A DNA stretch of 64,000 bases from a virus, in IMG/VR virus record IMGVR_UViG_3300047548_000652, positions 62,001 to 126,000 of that record, one strand, 5' to 3'. Each line of letters opens with the position of its first letter. Position 1 is the stretch's first letter. The position numbers and the translations under genes are program-made. The notes beneath the pieces are model-generated. The model was given only the letters and a program-made list of their open reading frames with translations. It had not been told where the DNA came from and made no database searches. Of this stretch, positions 2,018 to 31,916 are shown in pieces.

Positions 2018-2445
2018 ATAATCCTCACTTTTTTTGTTCTCTCAATAGGTACACGAAAGAATAACTCCCCATGTGAAATATTCTTGTTTGATACTGACTT
2101 CTTAGGACAACCAGAGACTATTTTTCCTGATGTGAAAAGAGCGTGTGTCTTCTCAGCATTTACTACACAGAAAAATATTGGCTTATCTAATTTTAGAAAC
2201 TTCTCTTTTCTTTCCTCAATATTCAGTTCTTTATACGGAAAGTTATCACCTTTCCATGCCATTTTTTGTTGAACTTCACAATAGTATTCCTGTGAGTCTA
2301 TCACAACAATGAGGTCTGGACCATATTTATCTTCGTTTATGGTTGCTTTTACACCTTTTTGGGCAAAGTAGTCCAAAATATTTTTTTTCACATTATCGTG
2401 AATATTATATAGTTTGGAGTCAAAAGTCTTGTATTCACCAATCAT
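2014..2445 (-). CDS. Hypothetical protein with possible nuclease-fold motif
   Basis: 143 aa from the ATG at 2443-2445, which overlaps the primase stop as ATGA and has GGAAG upstream; an ATG 12 bases earlier is less well placed. Residues YGPDLIVVIDSQEYYCEVQQK resemble the PD...ExxK core of PD-(D/E)XK nucleases, although Gln replaces the usual spacing residue. This is only a suggestion. No other family was recognised. It is coupled to thyX and primase. Confidence 0.75.
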   Translation of the reverse strand: MIGEYKTFDSKLYNIHDNVKKNILDYFAQKGVKATINEDKYGPDLIVVIDSQEYYCEVQQKMAWKGDNFPYKELNIEERKEKFLKLDKPIFFCVVNAEKTHALFTSGKIVSGCPKKSVSNKNISHGELFFRVPIERTKKVRII

Positions 2446-3476
2446 ATTTTCTTCCATAAATCAAACTGAACTTTTGCTTTTAGTCCTGTGAAGGTATTAC
2501 TATCTATAATACATTTTATATCGGTTGGTGTCATACCTTCCAGCACCATATCGTTTATATCCTTACTTGCGATATTTTGAGGCCAGATACATAATGTCCT
2601 ACCCTTTGCAATCGCCTTTTGCATAAACTTTACGATATGAGGATTTCGTGGTTCATTGTCAAAAACAAACACATAGTCATGGTCACCAACTGTTGAATAT
2701 ACTGAAGTTAAGTTGGCGTCCATTGTGGCGATGGTATTAGGTAGGAACATGCTGTCAATGGGACCTTCAACCACATAAACTGTTTTTGAAAGGTCAACTA
2801 TATCAAGACCATATACCTTGGCTACTGAATCATCTTTCTTCAGGGTGATATACTTTATTGGAGACCCAGAGATAGTTCTGCCCTGGACTGCAATAAGATT
2901 ATTGTCTTTGTCGAAGATTGGGATGATTACTCGTTTGTCATTCTTATGAAGACTCTTATTTGACATAGACTCAGGAAATAGAGTTTTAGCAAACTCACCA
3001 AAGTCATCTGTATAATACAGTTTCGAAAACATGTTCTTTGGAATCTTTCTCCCAAGGACATACTGTCGTGCTGGATGATCTTGTGGCAACTCCGACAATA
3101 ATGATGCAGGCAACTTATTTTCTTTGGTTATTTGTTTGGAAAATACAGGCTTCTCTTTGAGTTCTGTGAAGTCTGGTTGTGCAACATTTGCGGATGCATT
3201 TGTTTCCATGTATGTCTCTAACTTATGTTGATTGTACAACACAACATCCACAGACTTTAGGAATGATGAAAGAGACATGGATGCACCACAGTTGTGGCAT
3301 GTATAAAAAAGATTGTCCGTTTTTCTATACAGAAAGCCTCTTGCCTTACTCTTATTTTTCTTGGAATCGTTACAGATGGGACATCTAAAGTTCCAGAGAT
3401 AATCATTTTTTTGTTTGAATCTTTCCAATCTCATGGAGACCAGAGACACAAACTTTCTATCAACAAATAAAGACAT
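2442..3476 (-). CDS. DNA primase (T4 gp61-like, DnaG fold)
   Basis: 344 aa. It synthesises RNA primers for lagging-strand replication together with the DnaB-type helicase at 26028-27428. The N-terminus has a CHC2-type zinc finger (CPIC at 32-35, CHNC at 60-63). A TOPRIM domain follows with the acidic EGPID motif (about residue 235) and the VFDNEP motif (about 275). Length matches T4 gp61. The start has a TGAGG site. A TTGACA-17-TATGTT promoter lies at 3514-3542, with an 11-codon upstream ORF between promoter and start. Confidence 0.9.
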   Translation of the reverse strand: MSLFVDRKFVSLVSMRLERFKQKNDYLWNFRCPICNDSKKNKSKARGFLYRKTDNLFYTCHNCGASMSLSSFLKSVDVVLYNQHKLETYMETNASANVAQPDFTELKEKPVFSKQITKENKLPASLLSELPQDHPARQYVLGRKIPKNMFSKLYYTDDFGEFAKTLFPESMSNKSLHKNDKRVIIPIFDKDNNLIAVQGRTISGSPIKYITLKKDDSVAKVYGLDIVDLSKTVYVVEGPIDSMFLPNTIATMDANLTSVYSTVGDHDYVFVFDNEPRNPHIVKFMQKAIAKGRTLCIWPQNIASKDINDMVLEGMTPTDIKCIIDSNTFTGLKAKVQFDLWKKI

Positions 3477-3513
3477 AGTGCCTCACATGAATGGATTTGG
3501 GGGAAGTCCATTC

Positions 3514-3542
3514 AACATACAACAGTTAGATGGTCATGTCAA
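3514..3542 (-). promoter_or_regulatory. Sigma70-type promoter before primase
   Basis: On the minus strand TTGACA (3537-3542) is followed after 17 bases by TATGTT (3514-3519). It would start transcription about 30 bases before the primase ATG. The leader also encodes MLNGLPPNPFM (ATG at about 3515-3517), ending in TGA just before the primase start. This mini-ORF may couple translation or be chance. Confidence 0.6.
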
Positions 3543-3549
3543 GGGGTTG

Positions 3550-3996
3550 TTATTTCAAGAAGTTTAGTGCTTGGGCGATGAGGAACACTGCCAGAGATAT
3601 ACCACCCATGATCATATATCTCCAGGTTTCGATAACATTTATTTTTTTCCCAAGGTCTTCCTTGACCTTTTGAAGTTCTTGTAAAATTGCATTTTCAGTT
3701 CTATCAATTTTTTGATTTAGTTCCTTAATATCGGTCGTATGCTCTTTCTGTTGTCTTTCCAATATTACTTCTACTTCTTTGTTTATCTGCTCTTGTGCCT
3801 GCATCTTTTGCTCTTGAAGTGATACTATTTTTGATAATTCAGTCGCAACCACCTGAAGTTTATCAATCGTTGTATCCATTTTTTCGCAAAGTTTAGAAAT
3901 CATACCTATGTCTTTTTTCATAAGTTCAATCTCAACCTTTTGGCTATAGGCTGATACAGCATTATTATAATCTGGAAAATCATTACTGTTGGTCAT
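3550..3996 (-). CDS. Coiled-coil protein with C-terminal membrane anchor
   Basis: 148 aa. A long predicted coiled coil (residues about 20-120, rich in Glu, Lys, Gln and Leu heptads) is followed by a single hydrophobic segment near the C-terminus (MIMGGISLAVFLIAQALNFL). This tail-anchored plan resembles phage XhlA-like or holin-accessory proteins, but no family signature was recognised. Its ATG overlaps the stop of the upstream gene (TAATG), suggesting coupled translation. Confidence 0.8.
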   Translation of the reverse strand: MTNSNDFPDYNNAVSAYSQKVEIELMKKDIGMISKLCEKMDTTIDKLQVVATELSKIVSLQEQKMQAQEQINKEVEVILERQQKEHTTDIKELNQKIDRTENAILQELQKVKEDLGKKINVIETWRYMIMGGISLAVFLIAQALNFLK

Positions 3997-4370
3997 TAGT
4001 CCCTCTTTTTACCGTATTTTGCATAGAACATATAACCAGTTTTTTCATCCTCAAAAATGATAGGAGACTTAGGATTTTTCCTAGCATATTCTCTTATTTC
4101 AGGATGTAGATCATTATCTTCAATATATTTTCGCCAATGCTTTCCTTTTAGTTTTTCATATCTGGCTTTTTCAAAAATATTTGATGGAACCTTGAATGTC
4201 TTATTTCCAGCAAATATTCCTGTTTGTAGCCGCCTCATAATCGCACTTGAATCTTTTTCATTCTGTTTCTTGTACTTGTTGTCTGCTCTTGGAAAGGCTT
4301 GTGCATCATCACCAGTTCCAGGAACAGCGGCACCTGTGACATTTGCAATCTCTTCTCTGATCTTAGTCAT
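3996..4370 (-). CDS. Conserved T4-type hypothetical protein
   Basis: 124 aa from the ATG at 4368-4370, chosen because AGAGG lies seven bases upstream; an in-frame TTG at 4388 has no site. The sequence pattern (VPGTGDD near the N-terminus, then FKVPSNIF, KGKHWRKYI, YARKNPKSPIIFEDEKTG and a basic tail) is one I associate with conserved proteins of marine T4-type phages. Function unknown; it is small and basic. Confidence 0.85.
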   Translation of the reverse strand: MTKIREEIANVTGAAVPGTGDDAQAFPRADNKYKKQNEKDSSAIMRRLQTGIFAGNKTFKVPSNIFEKARYEKLKGKHWRKYIEDNDLHPEIREYARKNPKSPIIFEDEKTGYMFYAKYGKKRD

Positions 4371-4381
4371 TGTTTTACCTC

Positions 4382-4409
4382 TTGACAAGCCTTGACAACC
4401 CTATATAAT
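4382..4409 (+). promoter_or_regulatory. Consensus promoter-like element on the opposite strand
   Basis: On the plus strand TTGACA (4382-4387) and TATAAT (4404-4409) are 16 bases apart, a near-perfect sigma70 promoter. It points into the next gene in antisense, with no plus-strand gene downstream. It may drive an antisense RNA or be coincidental in AT-rich DNA. Confidence 0.35.
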
Positions 4410-4465
4410 CGCTGTGTGGCGGTTTCAATGAATATATTTATCTGTATTGTATTTTATAGGTTTTC

Positions 4466-4852
4466 TTAGATGTCTCTAAGTCTCTTAGCTACAAACAAGT
4501 CAATACTAATGGTTGATGACAATATGTTTGTGTCGTTTATACCAAAGACTATTTTAGGCATGTAGTTAAGGAATAGTAGGAAGGTTTTTAGTATTTCATA
4601 ATCTTCTTTATCGAACTTATAGAATAACATTCTAACAGCAGCTTCTGTACCAAAGACATTAGAAAGGACAATGATATGATTTAATATCAATCGTTCTTTT
4701 AGTTCTCCTGTTGTCTTATATCTCTTGATAAGTCTTTTTATGTATTTGATTCTTTTTAGGTCTTCTTCAAACTCACTCATCACACAGTTAGGATTATCAT
4801 AACACTTTATCGCATACATAATAAAGTTATCTTCATTCAAATTATTAAACAT
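4466..4852 (-). CDS. Conserved T4-type protein (DUF7207-like)
   Basis: 128 aa, all-helical by composition. The opening MFNNLNEDNFIMYAIKCYDN and the central KRYKTTGELKERLILNHIIV block match a widely conserved T4-type phage family of unknown function as I remember it. It has no membrane segment or signal peptide. It abuts the 68-aa gene upstream. No good ribosome site is seen, so translation may be coupled. Confidence 0.85.
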   Translation of the reverse strand: MFNNLNEDNFIMYAIKCYDNPNCVMSEFEEDLKRIKYIKRLIKRYKTTGELKERLILNHIIVLSNVFGTEAAVRMLFYKFDKEDYEILKTFLLFLNYMPKIVFGINDTNILSSTISIDLFVAKRLRDI

Positions 4853-26027: not shown

Positions 26028-27428
26028 CTACTGAACTTTCAACTTCTTAAACTTGTTGTTTGTTACATTCAATGTTCTTGTATTACTTGAGTTTAGAGGC
26101 ATTTGACCACTATCTGCAATGTTCTTTTGAGCAGAAGCGTCACAATCATACAGCTTCATCTTGCTTCTGTCAATACCTATCACAAACCGCTTGTTTATGG
26201 TTGGATCATTATACCTGTTCTTCAACTGTTTGATTAGTACCTGATTAAGTTGCTGAAGCTCCTCAGAAGAAATGATGGCAAACATAAAGTCCGCTGTTGC
26301 AGGTAGACCGAAACTTTCTGATGTATCTTCAAGTCCAACATCAGAAGATACAAAGCCTGTTCGATTGACCTGTGTTGCAGAAAAGATTGGCACATCATGT
26401 TCTACACCAAGACCTCTAAGTTCTTCGGCAATAGACTTGACATAGGTATAACTGTTGACGTTACCTCCTGGCTTTATTCTTGAAGATGCACAAATGTTTA
26501 GATAGTCAATAAAGATGATATCTGGCACAAATGACTTCTTGAGTTTTAGTTCATTCAACAATGCCTTGAAGTGGATTGTTGAGGCACCAGCGGTTGGATA
26601 CTCCTTTACAATGAGTTTTCCGTTTGACTTCGATTTTACTTTCTCGATTCTCTTGATGTATTCATTCTTGTTTAGAGCCATCAAATCATCAAATGAAATG
26701 TTCAGTAGATTGGCATCTATTCGCTTTGCAACTTCTTCTTCGGCAAGCTCAAGAGTAATATACAGAACATTCTTACCTTGATTTAGATGTGATGCTGCCA
26801 CATGACACATAAACAAAGATTTACCAACACCTGTGCCAGCCATAGCAATATTCAAGGTCTTCTTAGGTAAGCCACCACGAGTAATCTCATTGAAGTATTC
26901 CAGATCGAATGGAAGCCTTTCCTGAACTCTATGGTAATAATCAAACCGCTTTTCATAGTCCTCAGTATAGCTATGACCTACATTTGGATCAAAGCTAACT
27001 GCAAGGGCATCAGAAAGAAGTTGTGGTATGGCTCCCTTGGTCATGGATAAGTTCTTGGACTTATCATCCATAATCTCAATGGATGTCATGATGGCATTGT
27101 AGATTGCTCGCTCTTGACAAAACTTCTCAGTCTTGTTGATCAACCATTCATCATTTGGTGGTGGTTCATTGCCAGATGACTCAAACTCTGCCAGAATAGA
27201 TTTCATACCCTTATGGATATCATCCCTGAAGGTTGATGTATCAATCTCAACCTTCAGGGAATCAATCGTTGGCGGAATATTATACTTGACAATAAAGTCC
27301 TTTATAACACCAAACAGATTCTTCTCTGCCTCAACAGAGAAGTACTCTGATTTTATAAATGGTAGAACCTTACGAGCATATTCATCATTCTTGAGTAATG
27401 ACTTTAGTATAATGTTCTCAACATTCAT
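26028..27428 (-). CDS. Replicative DNA helicase (T4 gp41, DnaB family)
   Basis: 466 aa. RecA-fold motor that unwinds the fork and recruits primase (2442-3476). Walker A GTGVGKS follows TLNIAM; Walker B FIDYLN; the ELAEEEVAKRI helix follows as in DnaB. An N-terminal DnaB-like helical domain precedes it. No intein was seen here, although gp41 is a known intein site in related phages. ATG overlaps no neighbour; ends 17 bases before a small acidic ORF. Confidence 0.93.
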   Translation of the reverse strand: MNVENIILKSLLKNDEYARKVLPFIKSEYFSVEAEKNLFGVIKDFIVKYNIPPTIDSLKVEIDTSTFRDDIHKGMKSILAEFESSGNEPPPNDEWLINKTEKFCQERAIYNAIMTSIEIMDDKSKNLSMTKGAIPQLLSDALAVSFDPNVGHSYTEDYEKRFDYYHRVQERLPFDLEYFNEITRGGLPKKTLNIAMAGTGVGKSLFMCHVAASHLNQGKNVLYITLELAEEEVAKRIDANLLNISFDDLMALNKNEYIKRIEKVKSKSNGKLIVKEYPTAGASTIHFKALLNELKLKKSFVPDIIFIDYLNICASSRIKPGGNVNSYTYVKSIAEELRGLGVEHDVPIFSATQVNRTGFVSSDVGLEDTSESFGLPATADFMFAIISSEELQQLNQVLIKQLKNRYNDPTINKRFVIGIDRSKMKLYDCDASAQKNIADSGQMPLNSSNTRTLNVTNNKFKKLKVQ

Positions 27429-27433
27429 AATGT

Positions 27434-27745
27434 TTATTTACCGCCTGTTTCTTCCACAATTTCTTCTTTATCATCAACATCCACAGTATCCAAAATAAGC
27501 TGATTTAGTATCAACCCGATATGAGTAGTAAACTTTGGATCAGCCCTCAAAGATGCTTCTGTATGTTCTGCTGTTTCATGCAAGTAATAGTCAAACTGCA
27601 TAACAGCAGAATCATCTTTCGTTTCTTTGATGGATACCTGAGTATATCTGTATACTACACCATTATACGGACCAGTCAATAGGTGAATAGGAACTGTATC
27701 TGCCTTGATATCGTCACGAAACTTATAATCAATATTGATAATCAT
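27434..27745 (-). CDS. Conserved T4-type hypothetical protein
   Basis: 103 aa, beta-rich N-terminal part (MIINIDYKFRDDIKADTVPI, YNGVVYRYTQVSI) and an acidic C-terminus. It sits between helicase and the UvsX C-terminal gene, a usual spot for a small phage protein. No function recognised. Confidence 0.78.
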   Translation of the reverse strand: MIINIDYKFRDDIKADTVPIHLLTGPYNGVVYRYTQVSIKETKDDSAVMQFDYYLHETAEHTEASLRADPKFTTHIGLILNQLILDTVDVDDKEEIVEETGGK

Positions 27746-27750
27746 AGGAT

Positions 27751-28248
27751 TTATTCAGCCTCCGTGGTATTTGAAACATTTGACTTTCCATAAAGGAACT
27801 CGTTCTTACACATTTCATCAATCTGTTTTAGAACATCCTCTGTGAAAAACTTTTCTGGTGTCTTGTGAATTTGAGATTCAAAAGCCTTGGTTCCATCAGG
27901 AAACTCGTATCTTGTGGATACCTTCTTTGCAATCCCAAACTTTACAGCAAGATCAAGCAACCCATAGTATGGATCAAGACCAGATGCATAGTCAAGTAGA
28001 GTTTCAACTTCCTTGTTCTCAATAGTCAATCGTGCCTTCTTCAAAACAGTTTTGATGATTGCACCAGTGACTTCATTGTCCTTGTCCTTGTTTTTCTTCT
28101 TGGAAAGAAATACAATCGAGGATGCTGCATAATCGAGGCCTGAGTTATGTGTGATAGTTCCATTTTCTAAAATGTAGTGATGAGCAGTATTTACCGTAAA
28201 ATCATAAACCGGCTCAGTTTGAACTTTTTTGATTGATAATATTTTCAT
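27751..28248 (-). CDS. uvsX: C-intein plus C-terminal part of UvsX
   Basis: 165 aa from the ATG at 28246-28248, which has AAAGGAG eight bases upstream. The first 35 residues form a C-intein (PVYDFTVNTAHHYILENG, then THN), ending in His-Asn, the last two intein residues. The next residue, Ser36, begins the C-extein SGLDYAASSIVFLSKKK, the usual continuation of UvsX after KKMGGG. After trans-splicing the product would be joined to the 218-residue N-terminal half, giving a UvsX of about 348 residues. Own start and ribosome site show independent translation. Confidence 0.88.
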   Translation of the reverse strand: MKILSIKKVQTEPVYDFTVNTAHHYILENGTITHNSGLDYAASSIVFLSKKKNKDKDNEVTGAIIKTVLKKARLTIENKEVETLLDYASGLDPYYGLLDLAVKFGIAKKVSTRYEFPDGTKAFESQIHKTPEKFFTEDVLKQIDEMCKNEFLYGKSNVSNTTEAE

Positions 28249-28927
28249 CAAGAATCTCCTTTATGTTGTATTTGCTCCATAAATGTCTCTTTATAGAGCA
28301 TAGATGAACTCCCATTGATTTACTGACACCCAATAATGATCCTATATCAGTTTTCTTTTTACATTGTTTTTTGGTGCCATCAATAAAAATAATAGTTACA
28401 GGCTCGCTTTGGTTTTTAGATATGATATCTTTCGTAGTTTTAGAATGCGTTTTTCCATAGAAATGATTATCTTTTCCGCATTTTTTTGGTCTATTTTTTA
28501 GTTTCTGTATTGTCTCATTAGAGTGTTTTTTTCCATAAAATGGATTGTTCTCTCCACTAAATCTACTATCACCATAAAATGGATTGTTCTCTCCACTGTA
28601 TAACTCTCTTAGTCCTACTCGCAAGGTTTCATATAGTTTACCATTACCAACTCTTACATAACCGCTTTTATTATTAGAGACTTTCATTTTTATAAAAGCA
28701 AAAGCCATTGATATTTTATCTCTTTTATCTTCTACCATTTTTGTCAATAATGCGTGTGATATAAAATGTTCTCTTGGTGTCAAATATGCAATATTGCCTT
28801 CGCTATTTGATCCACCAAGAGATTTTGGTATTATATGATGGGCTTCACAGATCAAAGGTTTTTCACGCTGCTTCGATCTGTCCATAAGAGAGAAGTAGAT
28901 TTTTGTATATTTGTTTTTCATAAACAT
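28214..28927 (-). CDS. HNH homing endonuclease with NUMOD3-like repeats
   Basis: 237 aa from the ATG at 28925-28927 (AAGGAG upstream). The HNH core is [18 protein letters not shown] with following H residues. Then come repeats of GENNPFYGK type (three copies, NUMOD3-like), which bind DNA. It fills the gap between the two UvsX-intein halves, overlapping the N-half by 65 bases and the C-half by 35. It is thus the likely engine of spread of the split intein. Confidence 0.88.
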
Positions 28928-29876
28928 CGAGGTCTCCTTGCATATCTGCAACCTCAATATTTAGTGTTTCTGTATTTTTGACCGAATCCAGCATAGCATA
29001 TACAGATTTCCATTCACCGTCTACCAAAAACTTATGATCACCAGAACATTTTACTTTTGATCCATCATCAAAAGTAAGTTCGAATACTTCTTTATCATCA
29101 AAGGAAAAAGTTTCAGTGATCATCTTATCACCATATAGGGTAGATACAAAGTCTCCAACTTTTAGGTTTTGTATTTCTATTAGCCCGTCAGGAGTTTGTA
29201 TTTTTGTTCCTTTGACCAAACAACCACCACCCATCTTCTTGGTTGGAACATAGGCACCTACCACATCATAGATGTGATTCGTGACAACCAGAGGCACCTT
29301 TGCCTTACCCAACTTTAATGTGAGAACACGGAAGGCTGCACGAATAAGCTGTGCCCGTGTCATATCACGCTTGTCTTCACCTTTTGTCATATCATCAATC
29401 TCTTTGTCGGTTGATAGATTACCCAAAGAGTCAAGTACAAATAACATTGGTGGGGCATCCTTGGTTTTCATGTAAGTATCAAGGATTTTGATTGCCTGAG
29501 TTCTAAACTCTTGAACTGTGGCGACAGGAACAATAGCAATACGCTTTGTGTCCACACCACGATCTTCAAGCATCTTCTTTGAGATTGCAGACTCTGATTC
29601 AAAATAGAAGACAAAGGACTTATCATTATCCTTTTGAAACTGCCTGACAATATTGATTGCAAAGAAGGTTTTACCAGTCGAAGGCTCACCAGCAAAAGCA
29701 GTCACTTTATTATTGGGCAGACCGTCATAGATTGAACCGGAAAGAAGGGCATTTAGGCTGTATGAGCCAGTGCCGATATATCCGGTAACATCACCAGCAT
29801 CAATGCCTTCATCAGCAATACCGGCGTACTCGTTGTCAATCTCTTTGAGAAGAGATGAAAAAATATCATCTGTCAT
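28863..29876 (-). CDS. uvsX: N-terminal part of UvsX plus N-intein
   Basis: 337 aa. Residues 1-218 are the first part of UvsX, the T4 RecA: Walker A GEPSTGKT (63-70), [11 protein letters not shown] (Walker B region), [15 protein letters not shown] (213-218). Cys219 then begins an N-intein: [27 protein letters not shown], block-B-like SGDHKFL (278-284) and a C-terminal tail to 337. The protein stops there, so it can only be completed by trans-splicing with the C-half at 27751-28248. It catalyses strand exchange in recombination and replication restart. Confidence 0.9.
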
Positions 29877-29929
29877 AAGGTTCTCCTTATTGTATGTGTT
29901 AAATGAATAGCAATCTCGCCATTCAGGTC

Positions 29930-29937
29930 TATTTATA
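29930..29937 (-). promoter_or_regulatory. Possible late-type promoter TATAAATA
   Basis: TATAAATA on the minus strand, 54 bases before uvsX. UvsX is usually early, so this may be an extra late promoter or chance. Confidence 0.4.
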
Positions 29938-30277
29938 ATCTTACGATATCTTCTTCACTACATGTATGGCCTTGTTGTAGTTCCAGGATTACCAAAGGTG
30001 TATCCTTGGATGTATTAGTGACCTTGTGTATATCTCGAACATGTATCTTATGCATATCACCAGCACAGATTTTATATCCAAGTTCATTTATCTTCAAAAG
30101 TCCTTCTCCTGAAATAACAATCCAGGCCTCGGATCGTAGATTATGATACTGAAGACTAATGCTGTTTTCTGGAAGGATGGATAACTTCTTTACTTTATAT
30201 CCATCCCCTCTTTCCAGAACATACCATGATCCCCAGGGTCTTTTACAATAATCAACATCATCTAACTTTTTTGACAT
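29933..30277 (-). CDS. Cupin, phosphomannose isomerase (ManC C-terminal) type
   Basis: 114 aa single-domain cupin. [39 protein letters not shown] and HKVTN match the C-terminal half of type II phosphomannose isomerase/GDP-mannose pyrophosphorylase (ManC/AlgA). It would interconvert fructose-6-P and mannose-6-P, feeding GDP-mannose synthesis. The pyrophosphorylase half is absent here. It may serve the sugar cluster about 6 kb away, although it lies in the replication region. Confidence 0.8.
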
Positions 30278-31134
30278 TAAAATTCACCACCATCATTATG
30301 TGTTGTTTCTATTTTCTTTTTCCTTCTTGGTTCTTTGAAGGACTTGGGGGTTTTCATTTCCAAGAACTCCATTCTTTCATAGTCATCTTTACGAGATATT
30401 GTAATATTGAAAGCAAGCAGCAACATAACTGCCAGTGGATCAAATACAAATATCACCAATAGTATCACAAATCTTACTGCTTTGTCAATGACTTCATTGG
30501 ACGAATCCTCGTAGATAACCTCTGCGACATATTTGAGAGGACCTACTTCTGCTTCTAACTTTTTGACTTCAGCATCACCCTTGATCTTTTCAATACGCAT
30601 AGGCTTTAGTTCTTCAAGAAGTTTATTCTTTTGATCTACAAGCTCTTGGCGATTCTTCTTTTGTTCTTTAGAAGCAGAAAGAGCAGATGTTCCGCTTTTC
30701 TTTTCAATGATCTTATTGATTGAATCGTCAATGACCTTGATTTGCTTATCAATATCAGCAATCTCCTCTTGTTTGAACTTTATTTGCTCATCAAGAATTG
30801 TTTGTCCGCTGGCTGCACCAGTCTCAATAGATACCTGATGTTCAATATGAGCACGAGACAGAAAACCAAAGATGCCCATTGATGTGATGCCCATAAGGAC
30901 GACTATCGCTAATAGAAAATATGACTTCACCCTCCATTTGATATATGACCAGTTATGATATAACCAGGATACTGCGACAAGTTTACCTATTTCAAGAATT
31001 GATCCCATAATAACAACTGGCCAAAACGCACCAGCAAAGATTGCTGTAAGACCGATGATGCTGTAATAAGCAGCAACACCAGACAATGCCAACCCTGTTA
31101 TTAGCACAAGGAAGGCTAAAATATTGTGTTTCAT
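30277..31134 (-). CDS. Membrane protein with long coiled coil
   Basis: 285 aa. Three N-terminal membrane segments (residues about 5-28, 35-55, 73-95), a long charged coiled coil (about 115-210) and a final membrane segment (about 222-245), then a basic tail. This layout is known from conserved unnamed proteins of T4-type phages. A CATAAATA element lies upstream. The start overlaps the cupin gene by a base. Function unknown. Confidence 0.82.
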   Translation of the reverse strand: MKHNILAFLVLITGLALSGVAAYYSIIGLTAIFAGAFWPVVIMGSILEIGKLVAVSWLYHNWSYIKWRVKSYFLLAIVVLMGITSMGIFGFLSRAHIEHQVSIETGAASGQTILDEQIKFKQEEIADIDKQIKVIDDSINKIIEKKSGTSALSASKEQKKNRQELVDQKNKLLEELKPMRIEKIKGDAEVKKLEAEVGPLKYVAEVIYEDSSNEVIDKAVRFVILLVIFVFDPLAVMLLLAFNITISRKDDYERMEFLEMKTPKSFKEPRRKKKIETTHNDGGEF

Positions 31135-31166: not shown

Positions 31167-31916
31167 TTATGTGAAAAAGTCGTCTAATGATTGTGTGTTA
31201 TTTTGTTCTACTAATCGCAGCATTTTGTTTCTTTTTCTTGATTCAAAACATTTTTTTACAGTTTCTGGATTCTTCATTCCATTATTAGCAGATAATTTTG
31301 CTCTTGCTTCTGGATTATTTTCGAAATATTGTTTTACTGATTTTGATACTTTCGCTCTTGATTCTGGGTTTTTCGAAGGATGTTTATTTGGATTATCCTT
31401 ATAATATTGTTTCATTGATTTCGATATATTTGCTCTTGCTTCTGGATTATCCTTATAATATTGTTTTATTGATTTTGATGTGTTTGCTCTTGCTTCTGGA
31501 TTATCCTTATAATATTGTTTTACTGATTTTGATTTGTTTGCTCTTATTTCAGGTCTTTTCATAGGATTATTTTCACCAGTTATGAAGAAAGGATGAACCA
31601 TTTTTCCGGCAGTAGCATTTAGACAAGACCCTTTCCTATCTTTACCATACAATCCGTGTTTTTGCCAGCCTTCTTTTATAAGTTCAGGTTCTTCGTCTCT
31701 AAATGTCTCAAAGAACTCATCATACACACCATACTTCAATATCTCTTTTGTCTTCACATATGATTCATCTTTCCATAGGTCAGCATAGGTTGTTGGGCTT
31801 CCCATATAAGAATCTTCTTCCGGTAAACAATAGCAAGACCTAATACCAAAGTAATATAGTGGTCTTTGTCTCTTTTTCTTCAAAGTAATTTTGTAGAGAT
31901 ACACATATTTTGACAT
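31167..31916 (-). CDS. GIY-YIG type homing endonuclease with tandem repeats
   Basis: 249 aa. YYFGIRSCYC and DSYMGSP at the N-terminus resemble the GIY and YIG strands of the GIY-YIG nuclease family. From residue 128 to 209 four repeats of about 18 residues (KSVKQYYKDNPEARANxS type) follow, probably DNA-binding modules. It is directly upstream of the next replication gene's 3' end: the ATG overlaps the polymerase stop by one base. Likely a mobile nuclease inserted beside polymerase. Confidence 0.75.
   Translation of the reverse strand: MSKYVYLYKITLKKKRQRPLYYFGIRSCYCLPEEDSYMGSPTTYADLWKDESYVKTKEILKYGVYDEFFETFRDEEPELIKEGWQKHGLYGKDRKGSCLNATAGKMVHPFFITGENNPMKRPEIRANKSKSVKQYYKDNPEARANTSKSIKQYYKDNPEARANISKSMKQYYKDNPNKHPSKNPESRAKVSKSVKQYFENNPEARAKLSANNGMKNPETVKKCFESRKRNKMLRLVEQNNTQSLDDFFT
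31290..31535 (-). repeat. Tandem repeats in GIY-YIG gene
   Basis: Four protein repeats of roughly 54 bases each (one longer) within the coding region. The DNA copies carrying KSxKQYYKDNPEARAN are nearly identical, so they can expand or contract by slippage. Confidence 0.8.

What the first reader, a model, noticed from the sequence alone, without database searches (positions are those of the whole stretch)
27751..29876. UvsX is split by a probable split intein with a free HNH gene in the gap
The UvsX N-half ends at KKMGGG and runs into an intein beginning Cys219, then stops after 119 residues. About 600 bases later a separate ORF, with its own AAAGGAG site, starts a 35-residue C-intein ending His-Asn followed by Ser and the missing UvsX C-half. 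An HNH endonuclease with NUMOD3-like repeats occupies the gap and overlaps both halves. Fractured genes of this kind with split inteins were first reported from metagenomes (gp41, NrdA, NrdJ, IMPDH); a UvsX case would add a recombinase insertion point next to the ATP-site core. The mature enzyme requires trans-splicing.
Basis: partly seen in the sequence, partly recalled or inferred. Interest (0 to 1): 0.9.

Follow-up and report, generated by a model that had tools for sequence, protein, structure and literature searches.

The report
Phage recombinase gene split by intein
A virus of bacteria carries its DNA-repair recombinase (UvsX) as two separate genes whose protein products should splice themselves together through a split intein, with a mobile DNA-cutting gene sitting in the gap; the arrangement is real and well conserved, and it proves common in related phages, including about twenty already sequenced isolates.

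Summary
On the minus strand, UvsX residues 1-218 run into a 119-residue N-intein and stop. An HNH/NUMOD3 endonuclease gene follows, overlapping both neighbours. A third gene encodes a 35-residue C-intein, then the rest of UvsX. The three ORFs lie in three frames, each with its own start site, and independent contigs keep the layout, so it is not a sequencing error. Intein catalytic residues are present, and joining the exteins gives an ungapped UvsX. The closest solved relative is the gp41-1 split intein, by sequence and (through a naturally fused sister) by predicted fold.

Two points need correcting. The site is the C-terminal end of the L2 DNA-binding loop, not the ATP core. And fractured uvsX is not unique: 25 phage-genome records (about 20 isolates) and over 60 IMG/VR contigs carry it at the same site, with HNH, GIY-YIG or Vsr-like genes, or nothing, in the gap.

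Beyond the window, some contigs encode UvsX in three pieces (P-loop plus L2), and one lineage has the halves re-fused in frame where the endonuclease gene is missing. Verdict: a new member of the known 'fractured gene' kind.

The parts
29223..29876 (-). N-extein: UvsX residues 1-218, ending ...PTKKMGGG
   Evidence: Pfam RecA 1.7e-12; phrog_97 UvsX 2.2e-63; PDB 9gbg phage UvsX 6e-87
28863..29222 (-). N-intein, 119 aa from Cys1 (blocks A, N2, B) plus stop codon
   Evidence: TIGR01445 7.9e-5; gp41-1 intein 6qaz; alignment A1
28214..28927 (-). free-standing HNH/NUMOD3 homing endonuclease gene, 237 aa, own AAGGAG site; overlaps N-half by 65 nt and C-half by 35 nt
   Evidence: NUMOD3 3e-14, HNH 1.1e-3 (below cut-off); phrog_655 homing endonuclease 4.2e-40; conserved HHI..N..EH; overlaps
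28144..28248 (-). C-intein, 35 aa (blocks F, G) from ATG to His-Asn, own AAAGGAG site
   Evidence: TIGR01443 1e-5, above cut-off; alignment A2
27751..28143 (-). C-extein: UvsX residues 219-348, starting Ser-Gly-Leu, plus stop
   Evidence: phrog_18112 'recombinase' from residue 1 (IntC included) and phrog_97; exteins joined match 9gbg at 8e-130 without a gap at the junction
26028..27428 (-). neighbouring gp41 primase-helicase, intact (context)
   Evidence: tblastn to phage gp41

Best explanation
This is a fractured uvsX gene. Two separately translated proteins, UvsX-N/IntN and IntC/UvsX-C, associate through a canonical class 1 split intein (119 + 35 aa). The intein excises itself by trans-splicing: Cys1 attacks, the chain transfers to Ser+1, Asn cyclises after His. 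This joins Gly218 to Ser219 and restores UvsX at the end of its L2 DNA-binding loop. The HNH/NUMOD3 gene in the gap is a free-standing homing endonuclease that most likely cuts uninterrupted uvsX alleles in co-infecting phages, so that recombinational repair copies in the whole cassette. Shown: ORFs, frames, start sites, intein motifs, conservation, purifying selection, uninterrupted relatives, patchy distribution. Inferred: the splicing itself, endonuclease activity and its target, and homing.
For: Three ORFs in three frames with their own start sites, conserved in independent contigs. Intein N- and C-terminal profiles sit exactly at the junctions. gp41-1 is the top PDB intein match to the fused pieces. 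A naturally fused sister intein, L206, is predicted with pLDDT 83.5, and its best PDB fold match is gp41-1 (TM 0.82/0.90). Joined exteins align ungapped to solved phage UvsX, and intact cyanophage UvsX reads MGGG|SGLKYASS. Purifying selection on all five segments: among comparisons with unsaturated dS within the window's clade, dN/dS is about 0.03-0.34. Homologous fractured uvsX in 25 phage records and over 60 IMG/VR contigs. Of the 80 closest UvsX N-halves, only L101 (= L002) has an intein, 76 are uninterrupted (including 3 scored 'other') and 3 were not scored. Extein tree: the window groups with L182 (= L002; 100/100), but L183 (= L003) groups with uninterrupted L160; the four intein-bearing exteins are rejected as one clade (AU p = 0.014), while their inteins form one (99/96).
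Against: No biochemical evidence. IntN alone scores below Pfam's gathering cut-off, and the HNH domain is slightly below its own. The cassette tree is weakly supported and does not reject the extein topology (AU p = 0.138), so horizontal homing is suggestive, not proven; repeated loss could mimic it. The lower synonymous divergence of cassette than exteins in four of six pairs (permutation p 0.0002-0.012) could partly reflect base composition and saturation.
Confidence: 0.93

Rival explanations
1. The halves do not splice: UvsX works as a two-chain enzyme assembled without ligation, as reported for split NrdA of phage Aeh1 and split gp43 of phage 25, and the intein pieces are degenerate remnants.
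For: Split genes with functional two-chain products exist in T4-like phages (PMC2988022, read).
Against: All splicing residues are present (C1, block B S-x-x-H, block F D, penultimate H, terminal N, Ser+1). IntN and IntC are under purifying selection. At least one relative keeps the same intein re-fused as an open reading frame. Unspliced intein tails would sit inside the L2 DNA-binding loop.
Confidence: 0.05
2. Sequencing error or pseudogene: one contiguous intein gene with an HNH endonuclease domain, broken by two frameshifts.
For: Large inteins do carry an endonuclease domain between blocks B and F.
Against: Same three-frame layout in independent contigs and isolates; start codons with Shine-Dalgarno-like sites; L004 has a stop codon and 22 nt between N-half and HNH, so no readthrough or frameshift could join them; low dN/dS.
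Confidence: 0.01
3. A group I intron carrying the HNH gene, spliced at the RNA level.
For: HNH/NUMOD3 endonucleases commonly sit in phage group I introns; the ORF matches TIGR01453 group I intron endonuclease weakly.
Against: No Rfam intron hit in 27400-30300 even at E up to 1; the gap is almost filled by coding sequence; intein motifs are present.
Confidence: 0.01

Closest known systems
Fractured genes with split inteins (Dassa et al. 2009, NAR 37:2560; text not held here, content from memory)
   Same: Conserved phage replication or repair gene broken in two by a split intein, with a free-standing endonuclease gene between the halves.
   Different: Host gene here is uvsX; the endonuclease is HNH/NUMOD3 and overlaps both halves. 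Whether UvsX was among the eight enzyme types of that paper could not be checked.
gp41-1 split intein (PDB 6qaz)
   Same: Closest solved intein by sequence (4.7e-10) and by the predicted fold of the fused sister L206.
   Different: Different extein and longer IntN (119 aa here; the gp41-1 IntN length of about 88 aa is from memory); sequence identity is low (about 30% in the fold alignment of L206).
Fractured uvsX of cultured T4-like phages (PspYZU05, Yersinia TG1, Proteus Pm5461, E. coli HY03, Vibrio EniLVp02 and VmeM-32, Shewanella Thanatos-1, Salmonella CF-SP2)
   Same: Same insertion site (GG|S/T-G), split intein, endonuclease gene in the gap, followed by gp41 in most.
   Different: The gap genes examined by Pfam are NUMOD3 or GIY-YIG/Seg-like rather than HNH, IntN is about 96 aa, and the gap gene rarely overlaps both halves. 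Their annotations say 'RecA-like' twice.
MIJ3 PolB split intein with HNH gene (PMC6892783)
   Same: Split intein with an HNH endonuclease gene in the gap, in a cultured phage.
   Different: Host gene is DNA polymerase B; that paper does not mention RecA or UvsX, although MIJ3 also carries the P-loop insertion in its UvsX.

Membership tests
Fractured gene / split-intein locus | A conserved enzyme coding region broken in two, joined exteins giving a complete protein | tested here: met
   Joined 348-aa UvsX matches 9gbg at 8e-130 without gap at the junction
Fractured gene / split-intein locus | Split intein pieces at the break, N-piece on the upstream half and C-piece on the downstream half | tested here: met
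Fractured gene / split-intein locus | Free-standing endonuclease gene in the gap | tested here: met
   HNH/NUMOD3 ORF with own start site
Canonical class 1 split intein | IntN about 100-120 aa, IntC about 35-50 aa, split at the endonuclease insertion point (definition: PMC13014065) | tested here: met
   119 and 35 aa
Canonical class 1 split intein | Cys1, block B T/S-x-x-H, block F, His-Asn, +1 Cys/Ser/Thr | tested here: met
   CLVKGT..., SGDH, VYDF...HHYIL, ITHN, then Ser
Canonical class 1 split intein | Trans-splicing activity | not testable with these tools
   Needs expression and mass spectrometry
Canonical class 1 split intein | HINT fold | tested here: met
   Not folded for the window's own pieces: by model of the naturally fused sister L206 (pLDDT 83.5; Foldseek 6qaz 1.1e-10)
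UvsX / RecA recombinase | Walker A and RecA core, UvsX family profile | tested here: met
   GEPSTGKT motif; phrog_97; Pfam RecA
HNH/NUMOD3 homing endonuclease | HNH catalytic motif and NUMOD3 DNA-binding repeats | tested here: met
   NUMOD3 two stretches 3e-14; HNH 1.1e-3, below cut-off but its residues are conserved
HNH/NUMOD3 homing endonuclease | Cuts the uninterrupted allele and promotes its own copying | not testable with these tools
   Only indirect: patchy distribution and tree conflict
Group I intron | Catalytic RNA core in the insert | tested here: not met
   No Rfam intron match at E up to 1

The most novel reading that the evidence does not exclude
UvsX is a hot spot with at least three intein sites (P-loop, start of L2, end of L2), so that some phages build one recombinase from three polypeptides by two trans-splicing reactions. 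Because homing in T4-like phages depends on UvsX, the element sits in the enzyme its own spread needs, and splicing may act as a timing or DNA-sensing checkpoint on recombination.
Probability: 0.15. Interest if true: 0.8.

Novelty: new member of a known kind. Interest (0 to 1): 0.5.

Why it matters
UvsX drives recombination-dependent replication and repair in T4-like phages, and homing depends on it (PMC2988022). Its fracture therefore makes a required enzyme dependent on protein ligation. The uvsX family found here is a natural series (uninterrupted gene, fused mini-intein, bare split, split with HNH, GIY-YIG or Vsr-like genes, and double splits). It can be used to test how free-standing endonuclease genes create, exploit and are lost from split inteins. 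It also supplies many candidate split inteins for protein engineering.

Tried and rejected
Sequencing error or frameshift: rejected by conservation of three frames and by the non-overlapping L004. Group I intron: no Rfam match. Dedicated promoter or terminator brought in with the endonuclease gene: the scan found no more promoter-like sites than shuffled sequence and no terminators. A second intein in the same phage record: only one N-intein match in the 156-kb record. Charge-zipper idea: IntN is net -10 but IntC is neutral, so not a strong charge pair. Cassette-versus-extein tree conflict: suggestive from the extein side only. Literature: Dassa 2009 and Carvajal-Vallejos 2012 are not held; no held paper found that describes a UvsX split intein.

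Full report
The observation. On the minus strand the window reads UvsX-N+IntN (29876-28863, 337 aa), an HNH/NUMOD3 ORF (28927-28214, 237 aa) and IntC+UvsX-C (28248-27751, 165 aa). The endonuclease gene overlaps the N-half by 65 nt and the C-half by 35 nt, and both downstream genes have a Shine-Dalgarno-like AAGGAG before their ATG.

It is more than chance. TIGR01445 (intein N-terminus) and TIGR01443 (intein C-terminus) match exactly at the two junctions. Pfam Intein_splicing matches both pieces in order, below its gathering score. The two pieces written end to end find the gp41-1 split intein first in the PDB, 4.7e-10; a profile of IntN relatives also finds it among the top hits.

Artefact and RNA-intron readings are excluded. 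Contigs L002, L003, L004 and L008/L009 keep the same order with the frames 0, +1, +2. In L004 the N-half ends 22 nt before the endonuclease gene starts, with a stop codon in the endonuclease frame between them. No Rfam intron is found in the region. In the window's clade, all five segments (two exteins, two intein pieces, endonuclease) show dN/dS of about 0.03-0.34 where dS is not saturated; L004 comparisons reach 0.48.

The site. Joined exteins match phage UvsX 9gbg (8e-130) with no gap at the junction, and the alignment to E. coli RecA puts the junction at TTTGG|NALKFYAS, the C-terminal end of the L2 DNA-binding loop (the loop assignment is established RecA knowledge). Uninterrupted relatives read MGGG|SGL. 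Of the 80 closest UvsX N-halves in IMG/VR, one (L101, the same contig as L002) has the intein; 76 are uninterrupted (three of these the script labelled 'other' because of a Ser for Ala change) and three were not scored.

It is not unique. A search with the IntN of phage PspYZU05 finds 25 phage records (about 20 isolates) with fractured uvsX. Seven were inspected, plus Proteus phage Pm5461; nearly all are annotated as two 'RecA-like' or 'recombination' genes around a gap gene. PHROG families phrog_8337 and phrog_18112 match the window halves intein included, so they seem to be built from such halves. In IMG/VR, profile searches give 58 loci with an ORF in the gap and 15 without (five of the 73 are cultured phages), plus fused forms. 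The scan pattern demanded GG, Cys, an Asn/Gln terminus and Ser/Thr/Cys+1, so the constancy of those residues is partly by construction.

Mobility. Inteins of the window, L002, L003 and L009 form one clade (99/96). Their exteins do not: L003 goes with uninterrupted L160, and holding the four together is rejected (AU p = 0.014). Cassettes are less diverged at synonymous sites than exteins in four of six pairs (permutation p 0.0002-0.012), not in window-L002 or window-L003. The cassette tree alone does not reject the extein grouping (p = 0.138). I read this as suggestive of horizontal homing; saturation, composition and repeated loss are not excluded.

A natural fusion. L206 and L207 carry an intein whose first 269 nt are identical to the fractured L195, after which 661 nt holding the endonuclease gene are absent and IntN runs in frame into IntC. 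The tree nests L206 among fractured forms, which favours re-fusion by deletion over a pre-insertion state, with modest support. The fused intein is predicted with pLDDT 83.5 and its best PDB match is gp41-1, TM 0.82/0.90. This is the best available evidence that the two pieces make one working HINT domain; it was not folded for the window's own pieces.

Other breaks in UvsX. L005, L006, L007 and L021 break UvsX at the P-loop (a short IntN of about 16 aa) and again at the L2 end, so UvsX would come from three polypeptides. The P-loop break alone occurs in cultured Pseudomonas jumbo phages such as Paride and MIJ3. L206, L207, L217 and L264 have a further break ten residues upstream (VIG|SYVP).

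Mechanism and confidence. Best reading: class 1 trans-splicing restores UvsX, and the HNH gene is a homing endonuclease carried in the gap. Splicing, cutting and homing are inferred. PMC2988022 states that intron homing in these phages uses UvsX or RecA, so the cassette sits in a gene its own copying would need.

Novelty. A new member of the known fractured-gene kind. No held paper describes a UvsX split intein, but the key 2009 paper could not be read, so priority is open.

Noticed in passing
L005 3719-6282; L006/L021; L007: UvsX broken twice, at the P-loop (short IntN about 16 aa, GESG|SGKS) and at the L2 end, implying one recombinase from three polypeptides; L005 has a Vsr-like ORF in the P-loop gap.
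   Followed up: partly
L279 1227-4272 (phage Paride); L280 (MIJ3): Cultured Pseudomonas jumbo phages carry the P-loop split intein in UvsX with a gene in the gap; the MIJ3 genome paper does not mention it.
   Followed up: partly
L206, L207 around 2257-4756: UvsX split at a second L2 site (VIG|SYVP) and with the L2-end intein fused in frame, 661 nt with the endonuclease gene absent relative to L195.
   Followed up: yes
L217 2079-4789; L264 2444-4504: Further cases of the VIG|SYVP-type split, with a fused L2-end intein (L217) or an empty L2-end site (L264).
   Followed up: partly
L246 4289-5863: A 524-aa ORF with DUF7487 and GNAT-like regions sits in the uvsX gap instead of a usual homing endonuclease.
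   Followed up: no
L218 5873-7210: gp41 helicase ORF appears to run into an intein (TRAGYCLDLESKIITKTG).
   Followed up: no
window 31167-31916 (-): ORF with repeated NPEARANTSKSIKQYYKD units near uvsX, perhaps another endonuclease-like gene; no PHROG match.
   Followed up: no
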